A stretch of 64,000 nucleotides of DNA, taken from positions 1 through 64,000 of the forward strand of contig CAMXCT020002025.1 of NCBI GenBank assembly GCA_947184155.2. The letters run 5' to 3'. A model generated the notes under the pieces. The model searched no databases, was not told the DNA's origin, and saw only the letters and a program-made list of their open reading frames with translations. The DNA is from Cladocopium goreaui. Its lineage: Eukaryota; Sar; Dinophyceae; Suessiales; Symbiodiniaceae. Shown one piece after another: positions 2,294 to 39,800 of this stretch (the stretch's first letter is position 1; every line of letters starts with the position of its first letter). Made by a program: the position numbers and the translations under genes.

Positions 2294-5200
2294 CAATGAG
2301 AAGCATCCGCAGTATCCTCTCATCCAGGGTGACAGCGATGCAAGTACGACAGATCCGGCGTGGGGAGCCCGAGAAGCAACTGATTCAACTGTAACAATCA
2401 AGTGACCTGTCACCTATACCACCTATATGACGATAAATGTATGTAAATGTCCCATTCTTTTGATCTCAAACATCCTTCAGTTCAGAGGTTGAAGCCAAGT
2501 CCGCAATGCTCCGGTGATGTTTGAATTTTCCCGAAGGTCGGACAGTGGGGACCGCGAAACTCACGTGGACGACCACTTTTCGAACGACCACAGTGATTCG
2601 GGTAGCGCACCCGTCTGGGAACCCAATGGGCCACTGTGCGGCTCAGAGTTTTGCATGGACAATCTGCTTAATTCATGGTGATTACATGGTGATGGAATTT
2701 CTTAATGCAGTCATGCTTTTTGGGAGTTGATAAGAGGTTAAAGATGGTTTCAGTATGTTTAAGATGGTTTAAGTGCTTGAATCATCTTGTGTTTCCAGTC
2801 GCAGAGGCAGATTAATTCATGTGATTCGATCCACATCCAGTTGTCTCCTTGCAGGTGACTGCTGGGACCTCCGAGGTGGCTTTGACCAAGCATCTTGGCG
2901 CAGGTCTCCCCCGAGTCATTGCGGTCAAGTCATTGGGCAATCGAAGCACGTGGAGTGTTTTTTCCATCATCATCATCATCCATTAATAACCATTAATAAC
3001 CATGGATAACCATTAACATTAATAAACCACTACCATCATCATCATCATCATCATCATCAATAAGGATAGTAATGATAGTGGATATTAACACTAATAATCA
3101 TAGTAGTACTACTATTATCGATAAATATCATCATCATCATCATCATCATCATTTTCATTTATTTTCCCTATGAAAACTGCCCACGTGTAACCCATTTACC
3201 CATTTTTATTCCAGCTTGAGGTTGTCACAGCTGGGACTCAAGATACTCAAGATACCCTCTGGTAATTTAACATAGCTATTGAAAATCACAATTTTTTAAT
3301 GGGAAAATCCACTATAAATGTGGTATTTTCAATAGCTATGTTAAATTACCAGAGGGTAACCAGATCACCGAGGCTCTTGCCCAAGGAATTGGCGGTACTT
3401 CAATGGTTGCAACGCATGTGCGCCGCGCTGTTGGTGTGGGAGCTGGGCACCAAATCCACTGAACGCTGGTGCGTGGATCTTGTAGCCAAGTATGGCTTAG
3501 AAATTGGGTACCAATCGCCAAAATGGGTGATTCTTAGTTTCTAAATCATGCAGTTTTTGGAGGATTTGATTTTGAAACATACACACATCATCCCTAAACC
3601 ATGCAATTTTTGGGGTAATTGATTTTGAAACATACACACATCATCCATAAACCATGCAGTTTTTGGAGTAATTGATTTTGAAACATACACAAATCATCCC
3701 TAAACCATGCAATTTTTGGGGTAATTGATTTTGAAACATACACACATCATCCATAAGCCATGCAGTTTTTGGAGTAATTGATTTTTTGAAAAACTACCAA
3801 ATTCATTCCCTACCTAAACCATGAAAATTTTTTTGGGTAATTGATTTTGAAAAAACATACACACATTTCATTCCATAAACCAGCAGGTTTTTTGGGAGTA
3901 ATTGATTTGGGAAAAAAACATACAACAAAAATCATCCCTAAACGATGGGCAAATTTTTGGGGGTTAATGAATTTTGAAAACATACAACAAAATCATCCCT
4001 AAAAAAAACCGTTTTGACAATTTTTGGAGTAATTGATTTTGAAACATACACAAATCATCCCTAAACCATGCAATTTTTTGGGTAATTGATTTTGAAACAT
4101 ACACACATCATCCATAAACCATGCAGTTTTTAGAGTAATTGATTTTGAAACATACACAAATCATCCCTAAACCATGCAATTTTTGGGGTAATTGATTTTG
4201 AAACATACACAAATCATCCCTAAACCATGCAATTTTTGGGGTAATTGATTTTGAAACATACACACATCATCCATAAGCCATGCAGTTTTTGGAGTAATTG
4301 ATTTTGAAACATACACAAATCATCCCTAAACCATGCAATTTTTGGGGTAATTGATTTTGAAACATACACACATCATCCCCAGATAATTTTACAGCCATGA
4401 TGGGTGTGAAACATACACACATCATCCCTAAACCATGCAATTTTTGGGGTAATTGATTTTGAAACATACACACATCATCCATAAACCATGCAGTTTTTGG
4501 AGTAATTGATTTTGAAACATACACAAATCATCCCTAAACCATGCAATTTTTGGGGTAATTGATTTTGAAACATACACCCATCATCTCCCCCAGATTAATT
4601 TCCACCATGCCATGATTGGTGTGGTGCCGGTGTCCAGGTATCCGCTAGAAGACATGCACAAGTCCCTTGTAGCCAAGACTTCGAAATTTCCCGCCTCGAG
4701 AGAGACCCCAAGGGCCAGGGCTCAAGCGTTTTTGACAGACATTGAACTATGACACCAGGGTCCAGAGCATTGATCTCCCTTTGCTGACCTGAGTCACAGA
4801 CAACTTATCAGTTGAGGACCCAGATTTGGCTGCTTGTCCTGGCGCTCAGCTTGAGAGCTTTCGTACCTTCCCCCATCAGTTGGCCATAGGAGACCTGGGG
4901 GCGCCGAGGATTTAACAGATGTTGCGGATGATGTTGCCTTTTTTTTTGGCCCAACAAAACTGATGCAGATGGTGCAAGTGGATGGCCATAGTGGATTGCC
5001 ATTTCTGGAGGTTTCCCTGATTGGCATCTGGCATGAGGTCAGGAGTTGATGGAGTGGCTCATCAAAGTCACCAGAGAAAGGCGGCCATGGTAGGGAGTGA
5101 TGACGGCTAGCAAGGGCAGAGGCCTGTATCGATAGCATCCATTATTATCCTATATCCCAGGATCGTTTCAAGCGAACGTATGCAAGAATTTCGTATCTTT

Positions 5201-6811: not shown

Positions 6812-9800
6812 ATGTCTCGCCCCCAGCTGTCCGGAAACCGCCCCCTGAGCGAGGTGGGATTTGTGGGTGCTGCTGTCGCCATGTCAATTTTTATACTTAT
6901 TGATCTTGTTGTGTCAGAGAATGTGATAGGATCTTCCTATCAAGTGCACAGCTGTCTACAGCGAGTAGCTTGCAACAAACGACACCATGTCAGCGAAGAA
7001 ATCACAGGATTTCCACGTGAATTTTTTCCAGATCGCAACTCGCGGCATGTTGTTAGAGAAAGCGTCACAACTGTCAACATTTCTCCGGAAAAACGATGAA
7101 ACATGGATGAATCCTTCATAAACAACAAACACGATCAACATGTCAACCACAAGAAATGGACTATTTCATGATTTTTACCCAGAAAATAGTGTCAGGTTTC
7201 CTACAATGGGGGTACAACAACCAAATCATCCCATTTTTTAGAGGATTTTCAATTCTACACCAACCATTTTTGAAACCTCCACTGGACTGACCCATCCGAC
7301 GTGTCCAGGCTGACCCTGTCATGGCAGGCCTCGTGCAGGCGGAGAAGGTGAGCCTGACAGGTGTACAAGATACTTTAACTGTCAATCATCAACCAATTTG
7401 TGGGGTAAGGGTTTTGATGGAATTTAGCTTTAACATATACATACATAATCCATAAACATATTTTGATGGAATGGGGGGGTAAGGGTTCCTACCCTTCAAT
7501 CAAAGGGGATCACAATTATACATTAGTTATCAAGGAAGATGGATGGGTTGGCGACTAGCTGGATTGGAAGAGCAGTTCCCAATGACCAACACACATACAC
7601 ACACACACACACCCTAAACTGGCCCTAAACTGAACACGGAACCCCAAAATGGCCACCATCCATGGGAAAATCATCTTACAAACCGCATGTTTGGGGTTTC
7701 CATGGTGAAATTTCCGGTGTATAGATCTAAAATCTAATGACCTTCCCAGTCTTGTGCTGCTGAAGTTGCGCCAAGGAGAGGCAGATGAAGTGCATTGAGT
7801 TGATTGCATCTTGGATTGCAAGAAATTCACTTTGATGGGTTGGTTTAATATGGGCATGTCTCCAAATCTGGGCAAGCTCAGGTCTGTTGCAGCTTTGTTC
7901 TATATACATCTTTCCACAGAAATCTGGCGTCGGATGATTCTGACGATTCTCACGTCCCTAAACCTTTTAAACATCCAACAATTGGCATGCCTTAGGCCTT
8001 CCAAAAGGTGCCAATTGTGTGTGTGTGTGTAACATCTGAACAGATGTAAAACTTCTTTTGGTTTTATCTCACATTTGCAGGGGGCCAGGAACCCATGACT
8101 GTCCTGGCCAACGAAGACCAGACAGCATGGGGGTGAAAACGTACCTGCGATATTTTGAACTGTTGAACACGCTGTCTTGTTACTGCACTGTTGTCGCAAT
8201 CTGGAATCAATTTTGGTCATTTATGATTTGTTTCGCTGCATCAGAACCTTCCTCAGTTTTCGCCGAAACCATGTCGCCGACGATACTTGGGTTTTTTTTG
8301 GATTATTTCGCCGACAACACTACGATCGCCGATTCCTTTTGATGACGAATTTGGACATGGAAACCATTCAGGTGAACTTCTATTATTCGTAGGATGCTTC
8401 GTTAATTTCATTGTTTCGTATCTAATCTGCATGTTTCAGGATTCAGTTCCTGCCGGATCATATAATGATCCATTCTTGTCTAGTGTGATTTCCATGGTGG
8501 CTCCGACATGGTGCCATGGAGCCATTTGAGGCAACCCTCTTCAGGGTGAGTGTTGACAGTCTTGAATTCTGAATTCACACATTTTAATTTGGTAATTCAT
8601 CTAAGTGAAGCGAAACAGTTGGCCTTTCGGTTATGCACCTTTTGCGAAGTCCCGCGGATCCGGCCGTCCTTTGAGATCCTCTGTGAATTTCATTCTTCAA
8701 GCGTGACGTTGTTCGAAACAATCAGAAACCTTCTCCATTTCGCAGCTGCTTCTGACGATTCATGACAACAGCATTGGATACAGGAATCAGGCAGGCACAC
8801 GACTTTCAGGTGTGGTGTCTCTTTCTTTTGATGGTTGTCTGGTGAGGTTCAACATTTTGTGCATCTAATTCGATGGAACTTGAAAGCCGTTTTATGCCAA
8901 TTGGGGCAAGACTTGACCACGGTCCCGGTGCAGGGAATAATCGCACGACTCTTAGGAATCTAGGGACTGAATCCTGGTCGTGAATTCTGTTGTGTGACTT
9001 TCCATTGTAGTTTTCTCTACCTGAGCGATGTACCCGTGGACTACTCCTCCGACGTCATGGCCTGCTCCACCGCAGCCTACGAATCCATCTTCGACGTGGC
9101 CACCATCACCGCAGAACGCACATTTGTTTGGACATCCTTCGCCACTACATCCTACATGGTCTTCGTCATCTCCGCTCATGCCGTCTACGTCAGTCACATC
9201 ATCTTTGCCATTTACATCATTGCCTTCGGCTCCTCATGCGGTACCAGGCCCTCAACTCGTGCCTACAATGCCCGCACCTCTGGCTCCTGAAACCACCATG
9301 GTGCACACCGCTCCACCGACCTTCACTACCCCTGCGGCACCCACCGCTCCACCCGCATGGCATTCTGCTCCAGCTTCATCGCCTACACCGACTACTCCAC
9401 CGACACCATTGCAGAGCTCTCCATACCCACCTCACAACCTTCACCCTCCATTATCAACGGAAGCATCTATGGCTCCTCCAGATGAACCTCCACCACCGGC
9501 AGTTAAGGCTGCCCCAAAGCTTCGCTCCGACAAGAAACCTGACAAACCACGTCGTTCAGCTCCAAAAGCCTCTCTCCATGCTACACCACCGGCACCAACG
9601 GCAGCACCGTCTCCATCCATTTCACCAGAACTTGCAGCGCTGGGTTCCACTACACAACAACTGGCCGAATCGGTCCGTCTTATTCAAGCTCAACAACAAC
9701 TGATTTTGGATTCTCAACGCGCCCAAGAACAACGTCAGCTGCTTCTCCACCACGATGTACCTGCACCGGACCCTACACCGCCTACACCATTGCCTACAGC

Positions 9801-12800
9801 AACAACACCACCTTCAACCATGCCCCCACCTGCACCGAAAGCACGACCCACCGAACCTGAAGTTCCGGACCATCGCATCATCTCTCTTCCAGCCACTTCT
9901 CTGCCTCACCACCTACATGCTCCAACGTCGCAACCGCATAGACCACGATCCAGGACTCCAAGATCCCGTTCTCGTCGACCTTCTGCACAACCACATCATC
10001 GTCGACATTCTCCTCGCCGTGCTGTTCGACCTCGTTCTCCCCTTCCTCGATTTCGGTCTTCCACGAAACACGACAAGGACCGCCGAACTCCTTCTCCATA
10101 CCGACGACGATCACCACCAAGACGCCGCTCTCCCGTGGTTCCTCGACGTCATCGATCTCACCCCAGACCACGTTCAAGAACCCCTCGTCGTCGTTCCAGA
10201 GGCCGCGAAGTCGTATTACGACCAGCTGCACGCCCATCCAATCCGGCCTACATCCCCACCTGATGCTGATGACACCTGGGGCGAATGGAACAACAGTCAC
10301 AACCCCGACCAATACCATCACAACAATGCTCGACCCAACTCTCCCGCCGGCCCACCACCACCTGAAACATCTACCAACCCACCATTACCTCCCGCAGCAC
10401 CACTTGGAGCCGTGGCCTTCCGCGTCCCTGACGGCGACAGCGAAAACTCCGAGGTGACAGATGCATTTTCGATCTCAAAATTTGACTCGAATGACATCGA
10501 CCTCAGTGAAATGGTCGAGGCGGCCAACGATCCACTCAGGGTACGTTGCTTGACCGAGCTCGGCCCCGACTATACAATATCCCTACGCCAATCATTGAAC
10601 CAGTCCAACATGCAGCTCTTCAACCAGTTCGTTGACGAGATGTTCCTCCAGTTGGCCCAACCATATCGCAACGTCAACAATCAACGTATTTTCATCAGAG
10701 CAAGTCAGGCCACCGTCAAGAACATTGCCAGGGCCTTTGCACAATCCAGATTACTTGACATCGAGCTGGCGAAGCAAACCAAAGCCTTTTACATCGAGCC
10801 AGAGAACCTGCTGACCATCACGGTCCCGACGGGATTGCCCAAGAAACCGATCTATCGTGGCGAGCACATGGGCACCTACCTGATCTACCACAAAACGAGT
10901 TGGGAAACAGTTGCCAAGATCCTTGCTGAAGATTGCGTTCGCCCGGCAACTTGGACAAAAAACGAAGCCGGCTACCCGACCCAATACCCATGTTACGGGT
11001 TCTTCGGCATGTCCTCTGAGATTCCTGACATCGATGTCCTGCCGGGCTATGCCGTCAAGCTCTGTACATCCCAGCTCTACCGCATAGGGAAAGGACAAAA
11101 CCCATCGGGCCTATTGGCCATCTGTCGCTCTCCCAAATGCATGCGGGCCCTATCCGGAGGAAATGACCAAATTCAACGCTTGTGCAACCTACAGGGCATC
11201 TCCAAGGGCAAAGACAATGCAACGGCTATGAACTCCAGCGCTGCATCCATATGCTACGTTGCCTCTACTCATTCGGTTTATCCAGGCTTGATCACGCACC
11301 AGGCAGCGGAAACAAACCCATCCACTGCCGCAGCACCAAATGAACCACCAGCTGACCATGAACGTCCAGCACTACCTGACTCTACCATTGACACACCTGC
11401 ACCTTCAGACCCACCCCCAGACGACTCTCGAGCGACCACCAGCCACCACGAGACCACCGCACATGCCACACGAGATCATGCTCGCCGACATTGGCATGAC
11501 AATCCTTCTTTGGACGGTTCAACATACAACCGTCGAGATCGCCGTTCATCCTACCGCGAAGGCCATTCTCGAGATCAGCACCGTGAAGGCCAAGCTCGTT
11601 CTCGCACTTCGGCATACAACTACTCCAGATCTCGATGGTAAACACTTCACCCTTGAGGAATACCTGGCAAACTATCGACTATTCCGCGACAGCGATCTAG
11701 TGAGCCTAGTGGCCTTGCCCGATTCTTTTGGAGTAACAATGCTTCTCCCGACATTCGGTATTGACGCCACTTCTTCCATCAAAAGGTATTTGTTTGGCTG
11801 CATGCTCATGGTATTTGAATTCTGAGTTTCCCTCGATTTTCACCTCACGTCTCACACACCGGGGCAGTTTATCATGTTTCACACTTTTCTGATCGCACGC
11901 CACCTTCGTATCACCTTCTCACCCTACCGCAGTTTTCAGTCGGCTGATCGAGCTTATTTTGATCTATCATCTCGTGGCTTCCGTCTACATCATGGCGTCC
12001 CAGGATTTGATCTCCCAGTATAGCTCAGACTTGAATGCAATTCCTCCTTCCCAGCCGGATCGCTCACGCACACCTCCTCGACATCAACATGGCTGGCACC
12101 AAACAGTACCTATGTTCCGGGGCCCGATGCACTATGCGATGGCAACCCATCGACCAATTTGGAACCCTTCGGGGGTACCGCCTCCGCCACCTACATCTAC
12201 ATCGTTCCCAACACGGCCCCCATGGACTCCATCTACGGCACCTTTCCCACCTACACCACCTACGTTTTCCCAACAACCTCCCAACAACGCCAATTTTGCA
12301 CCTCAACGACATCCTTTCACACCAAGATCGCCGAGACCTATGTCATCCCCGGGCGCATGCTCTGCTGTCAATGAAGGATATACCTGTCGGCCGATCGAGA
12401 TTCCTCCGGTGGACCAATGGAAACCCGATGTCGATTTCCACGACTCCAACAAGATCAATGGCTTGGACTTTCCCTCCAGAATCCGACAAAGCCGTTTTTC
12501 GAGCTACAAAGACATTGAAGGTATGGATCCTTTACAAGTCCCACTCTGGAAGTTCTTGTACCAGGGCTTACACAACACCTGGCTCCGCCGTGTTGCATAC
12601 GGACGAGAAACCTTCGTCCTTCCTTTTGACAACATAGGCACTACAGTATTTGTTGCTGAATTGGTATCGCAACTCGCACCCGCAATGTGGACTTGGACAA
12701 ACTTGCTACTTTTCGATCTCGCTCGGCTGGCCAATGTGTGAATCAAAAGGAAGCCACTCAAAATATGGCCAAAGACGTCGCTCAGTTGCTCCAATCTTGG

Positions 12801-15800
12801 CTTCCGACTCAACCATCTGCCGATGTGGCGAGCCAACAACGCATTCTTGAACTAGAAGCGGAATTGGCAAAGATGAAATCAGCCGCCAGTACGTCACCGG
12901 CTACGGCACCTCAGGGGTCTACACCAGCCACGACACCGATCGGACGTGCACTCCAAGGACAACCCGCAGCTTCCACATCTTTTGACCCTTCGTCTCTATT
13001 GATCTCTCCGGGATCCGTCAACTCATGGCTCGTGGACAACCAACCTTCATCGTTGACTGACACCCAGTACAAGAAATGGTTAAAAGACCTGAAGCTGCCC
13101 CAGCCCAAGCAGGACATTTTGGAGAAGAACTTGGAGAAGGTCAACGAATGGTGGCAAAACCAACCCGATGATGAAACTGTCCAACGCGCCAGCGTGGCTA
13201 TGGGCATTGACCCCTGCAAGCACAAAGGGGCCACTACTGATGAGGTCGTCCTCAAGGTCATGACTGTGGCGTTACTGATGCACTCCTGACTAGCCTCGTA
13301 CCTGAAATCACCAGGCTCAAAAGCAGCCACTATTATGAGAACTCTGGCCGTGGCTCATGCTTGTATTCTCACCCTTGCATTGTTGACCCCCTTCACTTTG
13401 TCTCCTTCTGTTGATGTCTTTTTTGCTTGTCGGATGATCCAAACTGTATTGATGGGCCAGTATGTGTTATTACATCCACGTGCCAATTCGAAACTTCAGG
13501 CCTTGTTAAAAGGCACCCCGATGCAGAGCATTTTCTTTTGCACATCGTGGGACGACTTGACAGTCGCCCTCCAATGTTTCAAACACCCTCAGGCAGTGTA
13601 TATACGCTTCAGCCATATTGCTAATTTCCAACCAAAGTTCTATGTGGGTTCCACTTCTTCTTTTGTTTTGGACCGTGAACATTCTCGCTATCGGAAATTT
13701 CTGCAAGTGCGGCAGAACAAATTCGTGTTGGCCGAAGTCGCCTTACGGTTTTGGTGCAGATTCGACAATTTTTGGATGTGGTCTGTTTTCCCGATCTACA
13801 CCAATAAATCCAACTTTTGGGCTTTGGAACAAGCCTTAATTCAACTGTGGCAACCTCGATTGAATACTCCGTTCATTTACCAGTTCTTGAATTGCCGCAA
13901 GGGACTCATTTCGCGTACCAAATTTTCCAACTCACGGCAATTTGGAGCCTTTTCTTTGTGGCGGAAACTCCGTTGGCAATCCACACCCCAACATCTCCGA
14001 CGCGCTCTTCATAGTCCTCTTTTCCATCGACGAGTACAACTTTGGGAGATCATTCAGGATTTGGGCAGCAACTCCATCCGACGCTTCCACATGGAGAAGA
14101 GACTCAGATCAAACGAAACTGGCGCCCAAGGATGCTATTTCATTCGACGCCTGGCCAACAACCTTGGAGAACCTCAAAGGTCGTACGCAATCAATGCCAT
14201 TGACCGTGCTTTGACCTTCTGGAAAGCCAAACGGGTCCGCAAACCGTTTCCCCTTCGTGCACCTTGGCTACTGGCCCCCAGTTGGACTCGCGACCTCCGA
14301 CAGTTGCTCACCTCCCATGTCCATCGAACCCAATGCTACAACACCACCTTGCAGACTCCATCTACCGGGATCGTCTTCACAAAGTTTCCGTCGGTTATGG
14401 ACAGCTTGTGCAACCACAAGGAGGCCGCAGCCAAGTGGGCTGACGGCGAGACCCCAAAATGTGCCTGTGACGCTCTACGGCCTCATGCTCGTCATCATCA
14501 CCAACCTGATCAACACTTGGTCCTGGACGGCGACAACCTACATTTCGATGAAGGCCCGCACACATCCATAGCGACGGGCTCGCTTCAAAACAAAATTTTC
14601 CCACCTTCCAAAGAAATCCAGAAATCCCTTCGCCTTGCTTTGCGGACATGGACTACACGGAACTCCCTCCCTTCATTACAAAAAACCCATCTTGATGAAC
14701 TTTGGCACCGATCTATTAACTCCCACTACCACGCCCTCCAGGACCACATCACGCACAAAGACATCCTACGCTTCAAACACCTCTTCCCAGAGGCCATCTT
14801 TCACAACGAGGACAAGCGCGCTACGTCTCTACGGATCTACTGCCCAGTTCTCTACTTCCAGTGCCTCACCACCACCTTCGCCGACCCGTTGGTGTTTCGA
14901 AAATTGGAGAACAGCCCAAATGACATCATCGAGAAGACCATCGCCGAGATCAACAAGCAATTTGGCAAGTCATACCCTTGGGCCCTTGGTGCTGGACGGG
15001 ATCTACCGAATGCTTACGTCCTGCCCAAACGGAAGAAACAATTTCGGGCTGGGCGACCCATTGTCAGCTTCTTCACGGCACCTTTCCGGCCCATGTTGAA
15101 CTGCATTGCCAAACTGATCTACAACCTACTGCCCCAAGCGTTTCCCCACAACCTGGCAAAAGGAGATGTCTTCGACCTCATCAAGATCCTCAAGGACACC
15201 GACTTCGACACGCTCCCCACTCCGCGTATACATAACCAAGATCTTGCTGGTTTTTTCACAAGCATTGACACTGACCGCTTCATTGCCAGTTGGCGACTGA
15301 CCTTGCAATTCCTCTCGACCCTCATGAGCACCGACCCCGACGAAATCATCTCAGTGAAGGCGACCCCTGGCAATACCACAGGCGATGTAGTCAAAGGCCG
15401 TACGTGTCGTACACTCAATGTGACCAGGAAGATTTTCATTCGTGACATTGAACGCATCATCCTTATGTCCTTGAAGATGACACAATTTTCCATTGGCACC
15501 GCCGTTTTAGAGCAAATCCGCGGCTCCCCTATGGGCTCCCCGCTGAGTCCGGCGCTGTGCATGATGGTCGTCGCACTTTCTGAAGAAATCTGGTACCGAA
15601 CCTACCGCACCACGTTGACTACCATGGATCTTACAGCTCGTCTCCTTCGCTATGTTGACAACAGACTGTGTTTGTTGGATCCCTCGTGGAACTACGAAAT
15701 TTGCTTCGCCAATTTCCTTCATCCGGAGTTCTACGGCCACCCAATCATTTTGGAAACGGAACCGGACCAGGAGTTCCTGGGTTTTTGCATCGAGTTCGAA

Positions 15801-18800
15801 CCTTTCGCACTTCGCTACAGCCCTCCACGCGACTTCAACCAGGTCATGGCCCCATTCTCCGCATCGCCTATAGCAGTTCAACTTTCGGGTTTCGTCTCAC
15901 GATTATTTCTGGTCGCCAAATGTGCGCACCCTGCACACGAACGAACTCGAGGTTTTGCCGCATTGCACCGTTTGTACAGAGCAGCAGGTTTTTGTGAATC
16001 CGATTTAGCTGCCGCCGCCAAGCCTATCCGTCAATACCTACACACCTCTTCATTGTGGTAAAATCTGGTGCCGCCCTGACACCTTTGCTTATGTCTCATG
16101 TTTCACTTCCTGCTGGACGTCTCACCCTTTCCACTTGAACTTTATTTTTCCCAATGTCGTTGTATTGCCTTTTCAGCTGGCTCACCCTCACACTCGTTTC
16201 CATTTATACCTTGGGCCTTATTCGACACCGCGTGATGGCTTCTTCGTCTCCTACAACTTCAATTCCGATTCAAGAACCGGTGTTTCTTCAATTTCTTCAT
16301 GATGTTCACCATGCTTATCTCCTACTACACCGAGCAATGGCGTTACTTCCACCTACTCTCATCCCCAATATCGAACCTACACCTCTTCCCAGCACAGACG
16401 TATGGAATCAACCTGATGGGCTACGACCGCACTACTCGGACCGGACCAACGCCTTTATTGACACTGCCCACATCCCTTCGCCGGACATGGCTGAGGAAGA
16501 GACACTTATGGATGAGCTTTTGGAAACAAACCTTCCTGAACCACATCACCACGTTGCTGCCCCGTCACCTGAAGTCCTCCCTGCACCCTCGAAGCTTTCA
16601 ACCACCACACCAACAACTCCGAATCGCAAACAGAAAGCCAAAGCAGTTCCCAAAGCACCTGCAAAACGTCGTCGCCGACACGACAAATCAAGATCCCGCT
16701 CCTCGAGCCCATTGTCAATTTGGACCTCTGAAGACAAACAGAAACTTCGTACTTTGAAGGCGGATGAAAAGTCTCGATTTTCGTGGCGAGTGATCTCGAC
16801 CAAGATGGGCAAATCGGAGGAAGACGTTCGCTCTATGTGGAATAAGATCAAAGACAAACTTGGCTGACCACCGGCGACATGCAAACAAGAAAAAGAGGCC
16901 CGGCGGCACCGTGTACCATCTTCAATACCCAACCTCCTGTGTATCTATTCTCCTTTGCGTTACGGTATTGCCTAACCTAGCACTACATTATTTTACAGTC
17001 TTAACCCTGTCGGTATGGTTGCTCGACTTGAACCTTCAAACTCCACATTATCTACACCGTTAGCCATTTATTATGTCTCTCCGCATTCACCTGGACCGAC
17101 ATTGCCAGCAGCGAGCTATGGCCACGACGGTATCTCTCCTACCCGACGATCACGCTCTCCGACCAGGGCACCACCTTCCGCTACGGGTTCTTCACCTTTT
17201 CAGCACCCACCCGGCCGGACATCTCCGCCTTCTACACCCCATCGACCGGTTATTTTCCAATTGGACCTGAAACCTATGCAGCAATTGGCAGCCAGAAACC
17301 CATATTACAACATCCTGGCCCCCAAGGTCGCGGGCAACCTCTCCACTGAAGCATATGATAGCCTGTTCCAGACCTTCAAGGTGATCTACCCTGACTACGC
17401 CCGCAGTCATTTCGTTTCAGACCTGAAAACAGTGGTGACGGACACGCTTCTACAGAGATGGTCGATACATTTACAGGCGACGGACTTCTACATGATGATC
17501 GACACCGACCAAGGAGCTCAGATGCTTGATGACCTCCCTCATTCGCTCCTGGACATTTTGAACTGGTTCTACCCGTCATGGAAAACTCATCAACATCTCG
17601 ATGCCTTCACTTCTCGTGACTGCTCACCTTTGTTGCTGACACCCCATCCAGATCCGCAAGACACGGGCTTTGCTGTCCATCTTCAAGTGATTCCTCGAGG
17701 GCATCCATTCGTCACTGTATACACTAAGACCGCTGCGTGACAAGCTTTTCAAGATACAACCTTGACCCGCTCACGTCTATAGAAAAGGGAAAAGACCTGA
17801 TCTTGAAATCTTACGCCTTTCTGTTGATCCATTTTTGAGTTCCTATGATCTCATGGTGTCCCCTACTATACTTCTCGTTGTTGTTTTTCCAATATGGACT
17901 TCTTCCAACGGAATTTCGGCTTCAGCTCATTTCGTTTCGATATCATATTAATGCTTTTGTACATGGCGACCTCCGCGACTGATGATGTTCTTCGGCTGGA
18001 CCCAACCCGCTCCTCACCTACATCGGTACAAGGTCCAGATTCACATCTACCACCCGATGATCCTACTTCGGCATCATACATTCCCAGGGCAGCCAGAATG
18101 ACCCCAACCTCTTCGACCGTTCATTCTATGTTTATTAAGAAGCTTAGCTACCCCTTGTCTTCTCGTCCTGCTGAACTTTGGATCGTGGAAAGGGCACTAG
18201 ATGGTATTGAAACGTGGAAACCAGTGGAAACATTTTTGGAGAACATGCACCTTACCAGTGATCGTGCCACCTTACGCACCACGGCTAACCATTGGCGACA
18301 GTACTATGATGTACCCATCCAATCATCTTCCTCCTCTACGGCAACTTCCGTTCCTGTTCTCCCACATCCCGAACACACCAACGTTTACGTTTCTCAACCG
18401 TATGAAGCGATACCCGACCAGCTTCACATTTTACAATCATGCTGGGGACGTTCGGCTCAACACCATTCACAAGGTACTACCACCTCTCTATCTTGGCCAC
18501 CATGGAGATCTACACCACCTTCCTCACCACCGACAACACTTCACCGGACCTTACATTCCAATAACCCTACCGCACCTGCTCACCATTCACAGTGTCCACT
18601 TGCTGCGAACGAACCTGACCCTATGGATATGTCCGACTCTAGTGTGTAACACTCCACATTACTTGGCGGAATGAAGAAGAAAAAATGACCTAACGTCGAT
18701 TCGTGACCATGTTGTGTGTACATCGTCTTCTTCCGTGTCTTGCTTGTGGGTTTTATTTTTCGACCTCTTTAGTATTCTTATGTTGCAGCCTGGGCTTCAC

Positions 18801-21800
18801 GCTTGATACTCGACGCCATGGCTCACTCTTCTCGCCCTCACCCATATCGCGCTACATCCAGGGTTGATACACCACAAGGTCCCCGAACTGCCGCATGGCT
18901 TGCCGGACATCGAGGCCTTCCTGGTGATGTGGACCCTCCTCCATACAGACCTGTCCTGATTTTAGTTGACTACTCTCCTTTACAGGAATTGACACTCCGT
19001 AGTGAACCTGACCGTGATCGCTACATGGCTCTTGCCAATTCAAATTTGAAAAATGTTAGTGCAGGCGAACTTGAAGCTCTTTTTACCTGGTCACGCCAGC
19101 TGGAACCAATCGAAGCAGGCATTCTTCCCATTCGAGACCTACGTACCGCCATCACAACGAGATTACGGACCCAATGGGACATTCAATTTGAACCTTCGAA
19201 TTTGGAGTTTCGCTATGGCGATCTGGAAGGTGATGCTTTCCAAGTTCCCAATGATTGGACCATCATGCAGCTTTTGGAAGAATACCGTCCTGATTGGCGA
19301 ATCCGGCAGTACAACTACATCGAATCCACCTTGCTCGTACCGGGTACTTCACAGCCTTTCGTGCTACGTCTGAGATGCCATAAGGTTAGCCCTGGGGTCA
19401 TCCTACCTTGATGTGCTTCGCTGATGAACAGGAAAATGCATTACTTCTTCTTTCTCCTTTCTTTCATGAGACTTTATTGACACGGCGGACTCTTCGGATT
19501 TTCACCTTTCGATTCAATTTCCACCACCTTTTGTTCTTTGCATTACTCCTTCCTTGATCATTACTATTCTTATTCTCTGGTTCGGCTTATTTTTATATAT
19601 TTTCGCGTCCTCAGCTTTTGGGTTTGGCATTGAACGCATTTCGTGACCGTCTTACCCATGGAGCATAAACGTGACGCTACCGTGGCTGGCTTGGGTTGGC
19701 CTTCGAATCCCAACCGTGGACCCGCTTCCACAGCCCCTGAGCCAGAGTCAGGCGGCCCGGCTTCTGAACTATGTCACCCTGTTGCCCCTGACCCTACGAC
19801 CTCGACTACCTCGGCACCTTTGACCGCCACAACGATACATACTCAGGCCCTGCACTACCTGATGCTCCTTTCCCGACTGAGCCAAGTCCTACCTACAACT
19901 TCTTCCATCGTGCTCACTTTTCATCACGCGTGGTTCACCAGATCCATTTCAAGATCATTACGCACTCCAACAACACCAGGGAGTTATTCATCGAAGAGAT
20001 CCCCATGTCGGGGCTATCCAAATGTCGTGATCCTGAGCACTACTTTTATGGCCTTTCGGGCAACTGGGAGTGGTCCCTGCGCACTGCGGACTATTGGCGT
20101 CATCACTTTGAGATTCCTCTAGTACATGGGCATCATCCTTTTCACAATGTCCCCATTGAGACCACCTCTCCTACGGAGGCACCCCGCTTAACTACGAAGA
20201 TCCAGGAGCTGGCCAAACAACTTTCAGCCACTTTGACGGCAGCGATGGCATCGGGAGAAATCAACGACACATGGAGGATGGTTGAAGGCATGAGCTTCCG
20301 CGACGCGATCCAAATACTTCAACTCGAAGCGAATTTCCCTTCTGAGTGAAATGACCGCAGCTCTGTATACTAGCATCGTGTAGTCTCATTGCATTGGATT
20401 GGTTCTGCCGACCTCAGCCGCGATGATCTTCCAAAATCAAACCCCGCTACATGCGGGGTGTGTGTGTGTAACATCTGAACAGATGTAAAACTTCTTTTGG
20501 TTTTATCTCACATTTGCAGGGGGCCAGGAACCCATGACTGTCTGTCCTGGCCAACGAAGACCAGACAGCATGGGGGTGAAAACGTACCTGCGATATTTTG
20601 AACTGTTGAACACGCTGTCTTGTTACTGCACTGTTGTCGCAATCTGGAATCAATTTTGGTCATTTATGATTTGTTTCGCTGCATCAGAACCTTCCTCAGT
20701 TTTCGCCGAAACCATGTCGCCGACGATACTTGGGTTTTTTTTGGATTATTTCGCCGACATGTCGCCGATGTATTTGGATTATTGTATCAACACTACGATC
20801 GCCGATTCCTTTTGATGACGAATTTGGACATGGGAACCATTCAGGTGAACTTCTATTATTCGTAGGATGCTTCGTTAATTTCATTGTTTCGTATCTAATC
20901 TGCATGTTTCAGGATTCAGTTCCTGCTGGATCATATAATGATCCATTCTTGTCTAGTGTGTGTGTGTGTGTGTCTGAAAATGGGGTAGAACCCCCCGTGT
21001 ATAGCCATTGAATGCGGACAATTGTGATAAACCAATGGATTACCGGGGCTTTCCCCTAAATTTTCAGAGAACCCCAAATACGCCCTTCCAACCCAGTGGT
21101 GCCCGATGGGAACTGAGGCTTCTGAGAATTTCACCTCCCGCGCTGTCATGGAATGTCAGAAAGTCTCAGTGGCGGAAGTGAAGCCGGGCTGTCGCATAGC
21201 TTGGAATGCACGACTTTGTGCAATCGGGAGTCCAAAAACCTCACTCTTTGGCGTTTTTGAAGCCAAACCTAGTATTAAAATGTATTAAATAGGCGTAAAT
21301 CGGCTACAAAGCCCACTGAATCTATGGTGTGAAGCCTCTGCACAGCTTGTCATTGGCTGAGGCCTTGGATCTGCGCTGACCAACAAGTACTCTGAGGGTC
21401 AGCCAGGAGCGCGTGCGGAAGCTCAGCGGCTGGTGAAGGGCTGGCGGGTTTAGTGGAGATCGAAGTGTCTCAAGGTGGAGGGGTCTGACAATTTAGGGAA
21501 AACCCTGCAAATTTGATGATTCATCACGACAATTTCCTACTGAAATTTCATGGGCATATCGGCATATCCGATTTTCAGCCACTGTGTTCTCTGCAGCACA
21601 GCTGGCACAAGGCTACTACGGAGGAAACGAGGTGATCGACAAGGTGCAAGGACTAGCCCAGCCAACGCAAAGCAGTGAACATCCAAGAGTTGGACATACC
21701 CACACCCAGCAAGGTTTTTCAAAGTTGAACAAATCACAATCTGTGGGTATCAAACATGGCAATGGAATGCAATGGACAAATCCTCAAATTATCCATGTAG

Positions 21801-24800: not shown

Positions 24801-27800
24801 TTGCAAAAAGTTGATGGGGACGGCCATTCTATTTCAGTCTACCAGGGTGTTGTGGCAACTTGACATATCTTGACATATCTTGACATATCTTGACATATCT
24901 TGACATGTCTTGACATGTCTTGCCATGTCTTGACATGTCTTGACATGTCTTGACATATCTTGACATATCTTGACATAATATCTTGACATATCTTGACATA
25001 TCTTGACATAGCTTGACATAGCTGGACATATATCTTGACATATCTTGACATATATATCTTGACATATATATCTTGACATATATATCTTGACATATATATC
25101 TTGACATATCTTGACATATATATCTTGACATATCTTGACATATATATCTTGACATATCTTGACATATATATCTTGACATATCTTGACATATATATCTTGA
25201 CATATCTTGACATATCTTGACATATCTTGACATATCTTGACATATCTTGACGTTTCAATTTCAAACATGTGATATGATCCTTTCCCGTGTTTCCCATTAG
25301 ATTCTCTGGTGGGCCAGGTTATTACACCGCCAAGAAGAAGATTAGCGCCACGCTAAGACCTCAGTGCGTTGGACTGCTGGGGGATGGGTGGGCCAGTTTT
25401 TGAGCCCCATCAAGGGAACTCCAACATGGTCAATGTGATTTGTTTCAGACCCAAGTGGCAGATACAGTTTTGCATCCCACCCAAATGTGCAGATATGGGT
25501 ATGGGTCAAAATTGGGTAGCCCAATAATTAGATAGATTAGGCAGTAGTTATTAGATGTTATTAGTCACATCATGAAACCCAATAATTCAGGTTATACTTA
25601 TATGGCGGTTTGGGTTGGTGGTTTGGAAGTCTGGGAAATCAGAGTTATGTGCAAAATAGATTTGAAAAATGTGTGTTTTTTTTGTGTGTTTTGTATTTGT
25701 TTTATTTTTTGTTTAACTAATCTAATCTAATCTAATCCTGATCTAATCTAATCCTAATCTAATCTAATCCTAATCTAATCTAATCCTGATCTAATCTAAT
25801 CTAATCCTAATCTAATCTAATCTAATCTAATCCTAATCTAATCCTAATCTAATCCTAACCTAATCTAATCCTAATCTAATCTAATCTAATCCTAATCCTA
25901 ATCTAATCTAATCTAATCCTAATCCTAATCCTAATCCCTAATCCTAATCCCTAATCCCTAATCCTAATCCCTAATCCTAATCCTAATCCCCAATCCTAAT
26001 CCCCAATCCTAATCCCTAATCCTAATCCCTAATCCTAATCCCTAATCCCTAATCCTAATCCCTAATCCCTAATCCCTAATCCTAATCCTAATCCCTAATC
26101 CTAATCCCTAATCCTAATCCCTAATCCCTAATCCTAATCCCTAATCCTAATCCTAATCCCTAATCCTAAGCCCTAATCCTAATCCCTAATCCCTAATCCT
26201 AATCCCTAATCCTAATCCCTAATCCTAATCCCTAATCCTAATCCCTAATCCCAATCCCTAATCCCAATCCCTAATCCTAATCCCTAATTCTAATCCCTAA
26301 TTCTAATCCCTAATTCTAATCCCTAATTCTAATCCCTAATTCCAATCCCGAATTCTAATCCCTAATTCTAAATCCTAATTCTAAATCCTAATTCTAAATC
26401 CTAATTCTAAATCCTAATTCTAAATCCTAATTCTAAATCCTAATTCTAAATCCTAATGCTAAATCCTAATGCTAAATCCTAATTCTAAATCCTAATTCTA
26501 AATCCTAATTCTAAATCCTAATTCTAAATCCTAATTCTAAATCCTGATTCTAAATCCTAATTCTAAATCCTAATTCTAAATCCTAATTCTAAATCCTAAT
26601 TCTAAATCCTAATTCTAAATCCTAATTCTAAATCCTAATTTTAAATCCTCATTCTAAATCCTAATTCTAAATCCTAATTCTAAATCCTAATTCTAAATCC
26701 TAATTCTAAATCCTAATTCTAAATCCTAATTCTAAATCCTAAGTCTAAATCCTAATTCTAAATCCTAATTCTAAATCCTAATTCTAAATCCTAATTCTAA
26801 ATCCTAATTCTAAATCCTAAATCTTAATTCTAAATCCTAATTCTAAATCCTAATTCTAAATCCTAATTCTAAATCCTAATTCTAAATCCTAATTCTAAAT
26901 CCTAAATCCTAATGCTAAATCTTAATTCTAAATCCTAATTCTAAAGCCTAATTCTAAATCCTAATTCTAAATCCTAATTCTAAATCCTAATGCTAAATCC
27001 TAATGCTAAATCCTAATGCTAAATCCTAATGCTAAATCCTAATTCTAAATCCTAATTCTAAATCCTAATTCTAAATCCTAACGCTAAATCCTCATTCTAA
27101 ATCCTAATTCTAAATCCTAATTCTAATTCCTAATTCTAATTCCTAATTCTAAATCCTAATTCTAAATCCTAATGCTAAATCCTAATGCTAAATCCTAATG
27201 CTAAATCCTAATTCTAAATCCTAATTCTAAATCCTAATTCTAAATCCTAATTCTAAATCCTAATTCTAAATCCTAATTCTAAATCCTAATGCTAAATCCT
27301 AATGCTAAATCCTAATTCTAAATCCTAATTCTAAATCCTAATTCTAAATCCTAAATCCTAATTCTAAATCCTAATTCTAAATCCTAATCTAAATCCTAAA
27401 TCTAAATCCTAATTCTAAATCCTAAATCTAAATCCTAATTCTAAATCCTAATGCTAAATCCTAATGCTAAATCCTAATGCTAAATCCTAATGCTAAATCA
27501 TCATGCCAAATCATCATGCTAAATCCTAATTCTAAATCCTAATGCTAAATCCTAATGCTAAATCCTAATTCTAAATCCTAATTCTAAATCCTAATTCTAA
27601 ATCCTAATTCTAAGTTCTAAATCCTAATTCTTAATCCTAATTCTAAATCCTAAATCCTAAATCTAAATCCTAAATCTAAATCCTAATTCTAAATCCTAAA
27701 TCTGAATCCTAAATCTAAATCCTAAATCTAAATCCTAAATCTAAATCTAATCTAATCTAATCTAATCTATCTTTCTAAGTATCTGTCTATCTGTTTGTTT

Positions 27801-36800: not shown

Positions 36801-39800
36801 TATATCAGAGTTTACCTACAAAGTAGAAGTAAAGAATATACATCAGGGATAATCTGCAGATGAACATCGATGATCCTCCCCGGCCACTCGCACTTGAGGT
36901 CCAGGAGGAGAAGGGTAAGAAGCTCAAGGACTTCGAGGCCGCCCTGCCAGGCAATGCGGACATCGAGGTGGGGAGCGATTTTTCCCAGACTTGGAGGGGT
37001 TGAACCTACATTTCACTATACAACTTATATAGCTATATTATACATTATTACGAAAGCCAGCCGATAGGCTAGGCAAAGTTGTTTTGGCGAACGAAGTGAG
37101 TATTAGGGAGTTTGGGGGGTGGTCGTGGCGTATGGCGCCAAAATCTCGAAATTAGTTGCAGTGGAGGGTGGGCAGATTGAACTTTTTTGGGGGGCATGTA
37201 CCACTACGCAAAGAGGTGACGGTAGGCTTCGATTGCCCCTAGGTCCGTTGACAAACCAAGGAAAATGAAGGAAAATCGCACAGGAAAAAGGTAGGAAAAA
37301 AACGAAGGAAAATCGTTGAAAACAGGGGGGGAAAATGGAGGAATGCCAGGAAAAAGGTAAGAAAACAACGACAGAAAATGAAGGAAAATCGTTGAAAACG
37401 GGTGGGAAATGGAGGAAAATGGAGGAATGACAGGAAAAAGGTAGGAAAAAAACGAAAGAAAATCATTGAAACCAGGGGGAAAATGGAGGAAAATGGACGA
37501 ACATGGAGGAATGCCAGGAAAAAAGTAGGAAAAAAACGACAGTAAAGGAAGGTAAATGGAGGAATGACAGGAAAAAGGTAGGAAAAAAACGAAGGAAAAT
37601 CGTTGAAAACAGGGGGAAAATGGAGGATGCTAGGAAAAAGGTAGGACAAGAACAACAGAAAATGAAGGCAAATCGTCCAAAGCAGGTGGAAAACGGAGGA
37701 AAATGGAGGAATTCCGAAGCTCAACGGAGTGCCGCGTTCGTTGGGGTTCGGAACAAGAGAGTTTGCAAGGGGATGAGAAGTGATACTGAGGAACGATTGC
37801 AACTGCAGATGGTTTGGGCTTCTGTGTAGAGGGTAGAGTGTAAAGAGTGTAAAGAGTGTAAAGTGTGCAGTGAGGAGTGCGGTGAAAGAAACTGAAGGAA
37901 AATCGTTAACAGCAGGGGGAAAATGGAGGGCAATAGCGTTTGAAACACGTGGAGTGTACTGTGTGGAGTGGAGTGACATACAATCTGTCACCCAGCATGG
38001 AGTGAGGAGTGTACAGTGTCAAGTGTAAAATGTGGTGTCTAGCGGCTAGCGTGAAGTGTACAGTATGGAGTGTAAACTGTGCAGTGAGCAATGCGGTGAA
38101 AGAAACTGAACAACAGGGGAAAAATGGAGGGAAATAGCGGAACTTTGAAGCGCAGTATTGGGTGTTGAGTATGGGGTATGGAGTGTGGAGTGTGGCGTAT
38201 AAGGTGTGGAGTACTATGCAATCTTGCGCCATTTTGTATATGACGATTCGTCCAAAGCAGGTGGAAAACGGAGGAAAATGGAGGAACTCCGAAGCTCAAC
38301 GGAGTGCCGCGTTCGTTGGGGTTCGGAACAAGAGAGTTTGCAAGGGGATGAGAAGTGATACTGAGGAACGATTGCAACTGCAGATGGTTTGGGCTTCTGT
38401 GTAGAGGGTAGGGTGTAAAGAGTGTAAAGAGTGTAAAGTGTGCAGTGAGGAGTGAGGAGTGTAAAGTGTAGAGTGTAAAGTGTAGAGTGTAAAGTGTAGA
38501 GTGTGGAGTGTAAAGTGTAAAGTATGGAGTGTAGAGTGAAGAGCGTCGAGTGTAAAGTGTACAGTAGTGTGTAAAGTGTAAAGTGTGGAGTGTGGAGTGT
38601 AAAGTGTAGAGTGGAAAGTGTAGTGTGTAAAGTCTAGAGTGTGGAGTGTGGAGTGTAAAGTGTAAAGTGTAGAGTGTAGAGTGTAAAGTGTAGAGTGTGG
38701 AGTGTGAAGTGTGGAGTGTGGAGTGTAAAGTGCGCAGTGAGGAGTGAGGAGTGTAACGTGTAGAGTGTAAAGTGTAGAGTGTAAAGTGTAGAGTGTGGAG
38801 TGTAAAGTGTAAAGTGTAAAGTGTAAAGTATGGAGTGTAGAGTGAAGAGCGTCGAGTGTAAAGTGTAGTGTGTAAAGTGTAGAGTGTGGAGTGTGGAGTG
38901 TAAAGTGTAGAGTGTAAAGTGTAGTGTGTAAAGTGTAGAGTGTGGAGTGTGGAGTGTAAAGTGTCAAGTGTAGAGTGTAAAGTGCAGAGTGTGGAGTGTA
39001 AAGTGTGGAGTGTCGAGTGTAAAGTGTAGAGTGTAAAGTGTAACGTGTAAAGTATGTAGTGTAGAGTGAAGAGTGTAGAGTGTAAAGTGTAGAGTGCTGT
39101 GTGTATGTCTGTCTGTGTCTGTGTCTGTCTCTGTATGGGAGGGAGGTGACAGTTGGCTACGAGAGGTTACGGGGAAGCATGGGAGCAACTTTCTGCCATT
39201 TAGCGGCCCTTCGGTCGGCTATTGAATTTCTCTTCTGGGATCATTGGGAAACGGCCGTTTTGAGCCAAATCCTAGCCGGGAGGTCACAGGAGGTCACGGG
39301 AGCAAATTTCTGCCATTTGGCGGCCCCTCGGCCGCCTATTGAATTTCTCTTCTGGGATCATTGGGAAACGGCCGTTTTGAGCCAAATCCTAGCCGGGAGG
39401 TCACAGGAGGTCACGGGAGCAAATTTCTGCCAGTTGGCGGCCCCTCTGCCGCCTATTGAATTTCTCTTCTGGGATCATTGGGAAAAGGCCGTTTTGGGCC
39501 AAATCCTGGGTCACGGGTCAGGGGAGGTCAAACTCCGAAGCTCAACGGAGAGCAGCATCCGTTGGGGTTCGGAACAAGATAGTTTGCAAGGGGATGAGAG
39601 GTGATACTGAGGGCGAAGGGTTGCAAAGCAAGGAGAAGTCTTCCAAAGGTGCTGCAGATGGTTTGGGCTTCTAATCTAGTTCATACGGGATTGTAAGAGG
39701 ACGTTTGGGGGCTCGGGGCTGGCTTTCGTCCCCCCTTCTCAGGTGATACTATATTATATAAAATTATATTGATATATTATGGCTGATGATTGCACATATC

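What the first reader, a model, noticed from the sequence alone, without database searches (positions are those of the whole stretch)
8017..20960. A Penelope-like retroelement carrying at least eight ORFs between 0.5 kb direct repeats
Known Penelope-like elements usually encode one ORF (nuclease plus RT), sometimes two. Here the RT ORF is embedded among seven or more same-strand ORFs, including an SR-like protein, a Myb/SANT-like protein, ubiquitin-like frames and two duplicated unknown proteins, all inside one pair of direct repeats. If the whole unit moves as one, this is an unusually gene-rich non-LTR element.
Basis: partly seen in the sequence, partly recalled or inferred. Interest (0 to 1): 0.92.

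Follow-up and report, generated by a model that had tools for sequence, protein, structure and literature searches.

The report
Gene-rich Penelope-like retroelement family in an alga
A 12.9-kb jumping element with eight protein genes, its reverse transcriptase among them, spreads as one unit in this (probably dinoflagellate) genome, and its end repeats hold an RNA-like fold whose letters change from copy to copy while the pairing is kept.

Summary
Window 8017-20960 is one retroelement between direct repeats 99-100% alike apart from two small insertions. In the same 1.17-Gb genome, copies at six other sites align along it: four end to end (one with a small gap), one truncated, one with deletions. 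All ORFs are under purifying selection. In 43 of 50 scored RT copies ORF10 lies downstream. Part of the window's ORF count is decay: three ORFs are broken here. The intact unit has eight: A, B, RT, Myb-like and a duplicated two-gene module (7-8, 9-10). A second lineage (RT 45% identical, 10.8 kb) has the same order with one module. A third (RT 24%, 7.6 kb) has an A-like ORF, B, RT and one short unrelated ORF. The downstream genes therefore look added. Unexpectedly, the repeats carry a hypervariable pseudoknot-like motif: 4,104 genomic matches against 10 for a control pattern; of 58 distinct sequences among 100 listed, 49 pair perfectly. No known RNA family matched. The RT's placement in Penelope-like elements rests on motifs and structure, not on a tree.

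The parts
8017..8487 (+). 5' pseudo-LTR (pLTR), begins in (GT)n
   Evidence: 99-100% to 20458-20960; same ends in other copies
8032..8047 (+). terminal palindrome ACATCTGAACAGATGT next to (GT)n
   Evidence: invariant in 7 aligned copies
8077..8148 (+). hypervariable pseudoknot-like motif: GCAGGGG - P1 (8084-8090 with 8102-8108) - P2 arm in the loop - CAACGAAG (8109-8116) - P2' - CCTGC
8455..8471 (+). 3'-terminal palindrome GGATCATATAATGATCC of the pLTR, followed by ATTCTTGTCTAG(TG)n
9028..11641 (+). ORF-A: Pro/RS-rich N-terminus plus conserved C-terminal domain (possible ADP-ribosyltransferase-like); split here into 9028-10263 and 9755-11641
   Evidence: dN/dS 0.18-0.31, conserved domain 0.10-0.13; motif; weak fold match
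11992..13289 (+). ORF-B: 434-aa protein upstream of RT in the same frame as RT; split here by a frameshift
   Evidence: homologous in lineages 2 and 3
13335..16061 (+). RT ORF, 908 aa: N-terminal YIGST-type (GIY-YIG-like) region, CxC at residue 376, RT motifs, YVDN at 773
   Evidence: dN/dS 0.07-0.09
16154..16867 (+). Myb/SANT-like ORF
   Evidence: PF13921 E 0.0013, below cut-off; dN/dS 0.12-0.18; homologue in lineage 2
17015..17740 (+). ORF7 (paralogue of ORF9)
17894..18649 (+). ORF8 (paralogue of ORF10)
18803..19411 (+). ORF9
   Evidence: homologue in lineage 2
19658..20349 (+). ORF10, broken in the window copy (19643-20122 / 19930-20349), 241 aa elsewhere
   Evidence: dN/dS 0.04-0.11 for 19930-20346
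20458..20960 (+). 3' pLTR, followed by (TG)n and then other flank
20516..20591 (+). second copy of the pseudoknot-like motif

Best explanation
The finding is a full-length but slightly decayed copy of an abundant, probably recently active, gene-rich Penelope-like retroelement with its endonuclease-like region N-terminal to the RT. Shown: the 12.9-kb unit with pLTRs and all ORFs is copied as one piece to several sites; copies carry (TG)n at their ends; all ORFs are under purifying selection. Also shown: B and RT (with an A-like first ORF) recur in three diverged lineages of this genome; Myb plus a 9/10-type pair follow in lineage 2, and that pair is duplicated in the window's lineage; the two pLTRs of one element mostly share one allele of a hypervariable, self-complementary motif. 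Inferred: a transcript across the unit is the template; the EN-like region nicks a (CA/TG)n site, the (CA)n end anneals to the RNA's (UG)n tail and primes first-strand synthesis; the pLTR structure is bound by or processed for the RT; ORF-B is a nucleoprotein-like ORF1; each ORF is expressed from the polycistronic RNA as a separate spliced-leader trans-spliced mRNA, as is usual in dinoflagellates (recalled).
For: ends, copies, flanks; codon periodicity, dN/dS 0.03-0.31 for every ORF read in its own frame; 50 RT copies scored of 1855 candidates, 42 without a stop; 150 ORF10 copies scored of 1661, 146 without a stop; 43 of 50 linked; lineage 2, same order; lineage 3; RT similarity; motifs; 84, 87, 119, 120, 126, 129 (pLTR motif).
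Against: No RNA evidence was available, so template, trans-splicing and any ribozyme activity are untested. The window RT itself has no Pfam match and no member of A1 matched a GIY-YIG profile. No PLE reference was at hand to place the RT in a tree. (TG)n also stands before the internal 3' pLTR, so it may be carried by the element, and only 2 of 7 sites (C271, C3357) show TG-rich repeat flank beyond it. Own-genome searches with ORF-A and Myb did not complete, so genome-wide linkage was counted only for ORF10. Most aligned copies carry a lesion in some ORF.
Confidence: 0.84

Rival explanations
1. Several nested or neighbouring elements and captured host genes happen to lie between two pLTRs.
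For: Nested and tandem pLTR pairs do occur elsewhere (C47; C271 and C468 are followed by a further pLTR).
Against: Same ends and order at other insertion sites; same order in a lineage with 45% RT identity; near-constant ORF10 spacing; selection on all ORFs.
Confidence: 0.02
2. The copies are segmental duplications or assembly alleles, not transpositions.
For: C5878 and C3436 share the window's left flank (97.7 and 99.9%) and are duplicates or alleles.
Against: The other six copies have unrelated 5' flanks, each abutting (TG)n, and differ from the window by 6-15% in their main aligned pieces.
Confidence: 0.03
3. The RT belongs to another retroelement class that has acquired pLTR-like repeats.
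For: No Pfam GIY-YIG match; motif C reads YVDN rather than YVDD; microsatellite targeting could not be shown.
Against: YIGST-type region + CxC + RT order in three lineages, direct pLTRs and partial tandems together fit N-terminal-EN Penelope-like elements (recalled family description).
Confidence: 0.08
4. The hypervariable palindromic motif acts as folded DNA (for example as cleavage or recombination site of the EN or of cDNA), not as RNA.
For: Only 6 G-U among 323 standard pairs of P1 in 48 distinct arm pairs, fewer than is usual for evolving RNA stems (recalled).
Against: P2 shows G-U pairs; a structured RNA in the terminal repeat has a parallel in the hammerhead ribozymes of other PLEs (PMC6431247).
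Confidence: 0.3

Closest known systems
N-terminal GIY-YIG Penelope-like elements (Chlamys, Naiad; Craig et al. 2021, recalled, paper not held)
   Same: YIGST-like region N-terminal to RT, CxC linker, pLTRs, partial tandems, no hammerhead found; (TG)n at the ends recalls their microsatellite bias
   Different: Those are recalled as single-ORF elements in green algae, slime moulds, plants and animals; here four to eight ORFs, and a pseudoknot-like pLTR motif
Terminons / Athena of bdelloid rotifers (PMC6431247, section 8 read)
   Same: Penelope-like RT with many accessory ORFs and tandem arrays; terminal RNA structure next to simple repeats
   Different: Terminons lack the EN in the RT ORF, attach at telomeres, carry hammerheads and other accessory genes (exonuclease, GDSL esterase, Rep)
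EN-containing Penelope elements of Adineta vaga (PMC3846280, passages incl. parts of the abstract seen)
   Same: direct pLTRs, partial tandems, 18-bp and 38-bp palindromes at the 5' end of pLTRs
   Different: C-terminal EN (recalled), single ORF, no extra ORF set reported in the passages seen

Membership tests
Penelope-like elements | reverse transcriptase | tested here: met
   RVT_1 in 4 of 8 members of A1, best E 1.3e-4; profile match to an RT structure 8bgj, E 0.014; window copy alone no match
Penelope-like elements | RT groups with PLE/telomerase RTs in a tree | not tested
N-terminal-EN Penelope-like elements | GIY-YIG endonuclease N-terminal to RT | tested here: inconclusive
   YVGST/YIGST-type region in all three lineages (lineage 2 of C52 reads YVGSA), but no Pfam GIY-YIG match
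N-terminal-EN Penelope-like elements | CxC motif between EN and RT (recalled criterion) | tested here: met
   CAC at residue 376, both Cys invariant in 8 aligned proteins; CAC in lineage 3, CPC in P0069
Penelope-like elements | direct pLTRs and partial tandem copies | tested here: met
   same-allele pLTR pairs
N-terminal-EN Penelope-like elements | insertion bias for microsatellites (recalled criterion) | tested here: inconclusive
   (TG)n at the 5' junction of 7 of 7 distinct sites, but possibly part of the element; repeat flank beyond it at only 2 of 7 (C271, C3357)
Penelope-like elements with hammerhead ribozymes | hammerhead in pLTR | tested here: not met
   no Rfam match up to E 5 in 7500-21500; no ribozyme among nine sub-threshold matches in 14 pLTR loci
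Terminons | RT ORF without endonuclease, telomere-attached | tested here: inconclusive
   copies have other sequence on both sides; the EN-like region rests on motifs only
PARP-like ADP-ribosyltransferases (ORF-A domain) | ART fold with H-Y motifs | tested here: inconclusive
Myb/SANT | Myb DNA-binding domain | tested here: inconclusive
   E 0.0013, 19.3 bits against cut-off 22.9

The most novel reading that the evidence does not exclude
The pLTR motif is a new structured-RNA (or structured-DNA) class: a conserved frame (GCAGGGG ... CAACGAAG ... GTACCTGC) around a 7-bp stem, a second stem that would make a pseudoknot, and an optional third hairpin, whose stem letters diversify almost freely while pairing is kept. 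Because the two pLTRs of one element mostly carry the same allele and neighbouring elements carry others, it may act as an element-specific identity tag. It could let an RT complex or the two RNA ends recognise their own template (enforced cis-preference) or escape homology-based silencing without losing structure.
Probability: 0.35. Interest if true: 0.93.

Novelty: new variant of a known kind. Interest (0 to 1): 0.85.

Why it matters
Penelope-like elements are close mobile relatives of telomerase (PMC3846280, PMC6431247), and dinoflagellate genomes are large and poorly annotated (general knowledge). A family with the EN-like region first, a shared core and a growing set of conserved accessory genes shows a retroelement group gaining genes stepwise inside one genome, with intermediates to compare. 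The hypervariable, pairing-conserved end motif, with thousands of natural variants, makes recognition of template RNA by a telomerase-like RT directly testable.

Tried and rejected
Nested insertions: rejected by colinear copies. Ubiquitin-like reading of the 3' ORFs: no Pfam support. Programmed -1 or +1 frameshifting to join ORF1/ORF2 and ORF3/ORF4: set aside, since other copies have single frames. Hammerhead or other known RNA family: no Rfam match; the nine sub-threshold matches in 14 pLTR loci name miRNA, snoRNA, sRNA and other non-ribozyme families and look like simple-repeat or chance alignments. Single-sequence fold of the ORF-A domain: useless (pLDDT 35); this spent one of two structure jobs. 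Chance as a source of the pLTR pairing: 120 chance matches of the same pattern in viral contigs have 0 of 120 with 7/7 pairs. Literature: searches listed no paper whose title or abstract start describes this element or a pseudoknot in a Penelope-like pLTR; only those listings (plus passages and a section) were seen, and the library lacks most subscription papers.
Full report
What is there. Window 8017-20960 is bounded by direct repeats that match in blocks of 85, 221 and 173 nt at 100, 100 and 99%; the 3' copy differs by a 4-nt and a 30-nt insertion and two substitutions. In 2-kb windows the + strand is C-rich over about this stretch. The window is contig C2025:1-64000 of an unnamed 1.17-Gb assembly in 6202 contigs. 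The only RT relative listed with an organism name is from Durusdinium trenchii (P0046, 63% identity), so the host is probably a dinoflagellate; that is an inference.

It moves as one unit. A search with the 5' kilobase gave 94 matches (40 candidates scored of 2815). I fetched parts of ten contigs. Besides the window, copies at C1894, C468 and C271 align in one piece from 8016-8019 to 20966-20970 at 87.6, 89.8 and 85.2%; C1996 aligns in two pieces with a small gap; C3357 is 3'-truncated; C5970 has internal deletions; C42 and C2082 hold only short elements; C5878 and C3436 share the window's left flank. The six sites other than the window's have different 5' flanks, and each copy starts in (TG)n followed by TAACATCTGAACAGATGT; the 3' ends examined read close to GGATCATATAATGATCCATTCTTGTCTAG(TG)n. 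C271 and C468 are followed directly by another pLTR. With the RT protein, 50 copies were scored of 1855 candidates and 42 have no stop. With ORF10, 150 were scored of 1661 and 146 have no stop. In 43 of the 50 RT copies an ORF10 lies downstream on the same strand: 42 at 3.4-3.7 kb and one at 0.93 kb. The seven without include the window's own copy, whose ORF10 is broken, and C3436 and C1446, which run into a contig end; both lists are capped at the best-scoring copies.

The ORFs. In an alignment of seven copies (C5970, C3436 and the short ones left out), substitutions concentrate at third codon positions of the expected frame through every ORF. dN/dS is 0.07-0.09 for RT, 0.03-0.06 for ORF4, 0.10-0.21 for ORF3, 0.18-0.31 for ORF-A (0.10-0.13 in its conserved domain), 0.12-0.18 for the Myb-like ORF, 0.13-0.28 for ORF7-9 and 0.04-0.11 for ORF10 in its 19930-20346 part, for pairs other than the near-identical C5878. 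Stretches read in another register gave 0.7-1.8, as they should. Most copies carry some lesion in one ORF or another. In the window, ORF-A, ORF-B and ORF10 are broken; other copies have them whole (871, 434 and 241 aa), ORF-A in only 2 of the other 6 aligned copies. The intact order is A - B - RT - Myb-like - 7 - 8 - 9 - 10. ORF7/ORF9 and ORF8/ORF10 are paralogous (E 4e-13 and 3e-5 as single comparisons; about 4e-9 and 6e-4), so 7-8 and 9-10 are a duplicated two-gene module.

Relatives suggest stepwise growth. A query with P0049 scored 49 RT copies of 1887 candidates, 38 without stops, at 48-50% identity to that query. One, C52:247950-258950, has pLTR motifs 10,794 bp apart and, in the same order, ORF-A (broken in this copy, one frame in C3540 and C47, and up to the GAFY motif in C285), ORF-B (39%), RT (45%), Myb-like (34%), one ORF9-like and one ORF10-like gene, each found by tblastn at E 4e-6 or better. 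A third lineage (C28:84200-92100, motifs 7,588 bp apart) has an RT 24% identical, a significant ORF-B (E 5e-9), a 570-aa first ORF with H-x-T...IRP...FF like ORF-A (read by eye, not significant by BLAST) and, after RT, only a 139-aa RS-containing ORF with no match to Myb, 9 or 10 at E 1e-3. Two further fetched elements are a truncated lineage-2 element (L058) and one with repeated, fragmentary genes (L059). I therefore read an A-B-RT core with later gains downstream; with one copy of lineage 3 read, loss of the downstream genes there is not excluded.

The pLTR motif. Copies that agree elsewhere differ just inside the pLTR, yet stay self-complementary. The frame is GCAGGGG - 7-nt arm - 11-15 nt - complementary 7-nt arm - CAACGAAG - a strand complementary to the loop - optional hairpin, mostly with loop CTGATCA or GACG - GTACCTGC. 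Of 30 parsed sequences from the fetched loci, some of them near-duplicates, 28 have 7 of 7 P1 pairs, one 6, and one was misparsed; two more were set aside for lack of an exact 3' anchor. In 21 alleles the second stem scores 27.4 on average against 13.4 for mismatched partners (4% of the latter reach the lowest own score), and 16 of 21 have the third hairpin. In an alignment of 20 alleles made by MAFFT from sequence alone, 84.5% of cells pair against 34-44% for slid partners, and the covariation score is 0.58 against 0.15 in shuffles (0 of 500 reach it). Two of the five measures are weaker: pairs with a change on both sides 18 against 16.4 (50 of 500 reach it) and further pair types 59 against 51 (15 of 500). 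I wrote the structure from these same sequences, which favours it. Six of 7 P1 pairs and 12 of 12 P2 pairs have changes on both sides; the outer GCAGG/CCTGC stem never varies and says nothing. Genome-wide the pattern has 2074 + 2030 matches against 6 + 4 for the reversed pattern. Among the 100 places listed there are 58 distinct sequences: 49 have 7 of 7 pairs, 8 have 6, and one, a base short and so out of register, has 2; by place 90, 9 and 1; 43 different 5' arms (an earlier count had missed 8 of the 58). As a control, 120 chance matches in viral contigs have 0 of 120 with 7 of 7, mean 2.4. Among 42 neighbouring same-strand matches within 18 kb, 31 share the arm exactly and 3 with one change; 8 differ, one of them by the same register shift; pairs on different contigs agree in 91 of 4788. 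So the two pLTRs of one element mostly share an allele; C5878 is an exception. Same-allele spacings run from 1.0 to 17.5 kb, 15 of 34 under 1.5 kb, presumably non-autonomous elements. The rarity of G-U (6 of 323 pairs) leaves open whether RNA or folded DNA is the selected form. Full pairing of a 7-bp and a 15-bp stem with no linker is sterically doubtful for some alleles, so P1 and P2 might alternate rather than coexist.

Mechanism. (TG)n at both ends of the copies examined, the palindromes beside them and the EN-like region suggest priming of reverse transcription by a nicked (CA)n strand on the RNA's (UG)n tail; this is inferred, and whether (TG)n is target or element is open. Expression of eight ORFs from one strand is plausible through spliced-leader trans-splicing in dinoflagellates (recalled). 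26 of the 120 listed ORF10 clusters have a longest contig under 2 kb, against 0 of 71 RT and 0 of 44 ORF-A clusters, which would fit separate mRNAs, but ORF10 is far shorter than the other two, so this may be no more than gene length.

Verdict. On rechecking I lowered the main confidence from 0.86 to 0.84 and raised the rival RT class from 0.07 to 0.08, because microsatellite targeting proved inconclusive.

Noticed in passing
window 15651-15662 (RT residues 773-776) and all three RT lineages: RT motif C reads YVDN, not YVDD, in the window RT, in the aligned relatives that cover this region, in lineage 3 and in P0069; whether this is known for the clade was not checked.
   Followed up: partly
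window 13287-13335: ORF-B and RT share a reading frame, separated by one TGA in all seven aligned copies; a distant relative (P0056, 1362 aa) appears to have both in one protein, so stop readthrough is possible.
   Followed up: partly
L009-L011 (C5878): C5878 shares the window's left flank and 5' pLTR allele but its 3' pLTR has a different motif allele (GGTGCAG), suggesting recombination or loss between tandem pLTRs.
   Followed up: partly
C42, C2082, C3729, C2369 and others: Short elements of about 1.0-1.5 kb keep pLTR parts and the stretch like window 8377-9008, some in tandem; likely non-autonomous derivatives.
   Followed up: partly
window 8317-8616: Non-coding stretch across the pLTR end diverges least between copies outside the ORFs, with a splice-donor-like AGGGTGAGT near 8543.
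   Followed up: no
P0099: A 504-aa database protein joins the ORF-A domain to a different RT (Pfam RVT_1); could be a chimaeric insertion.
   Followed up: no
L059 (C28:21200-30750): Another pLTR-bounded element with internally repeated ORFs, a different 5' sequence after (TG)n (GAGAAACCCTGAATCAAAGGG) and only fragments of ORF-B and the YIG-type region.
   Followed up: no
window 25717-27767, 3541-4585, 38399-39096, 39181-39507: Satellite-like arrays: CTAATCC-type (about 2 kb, extreme strand skew), a 53-bp unit, GTGTAGA and a 117-bp unit.
   Followed up: no
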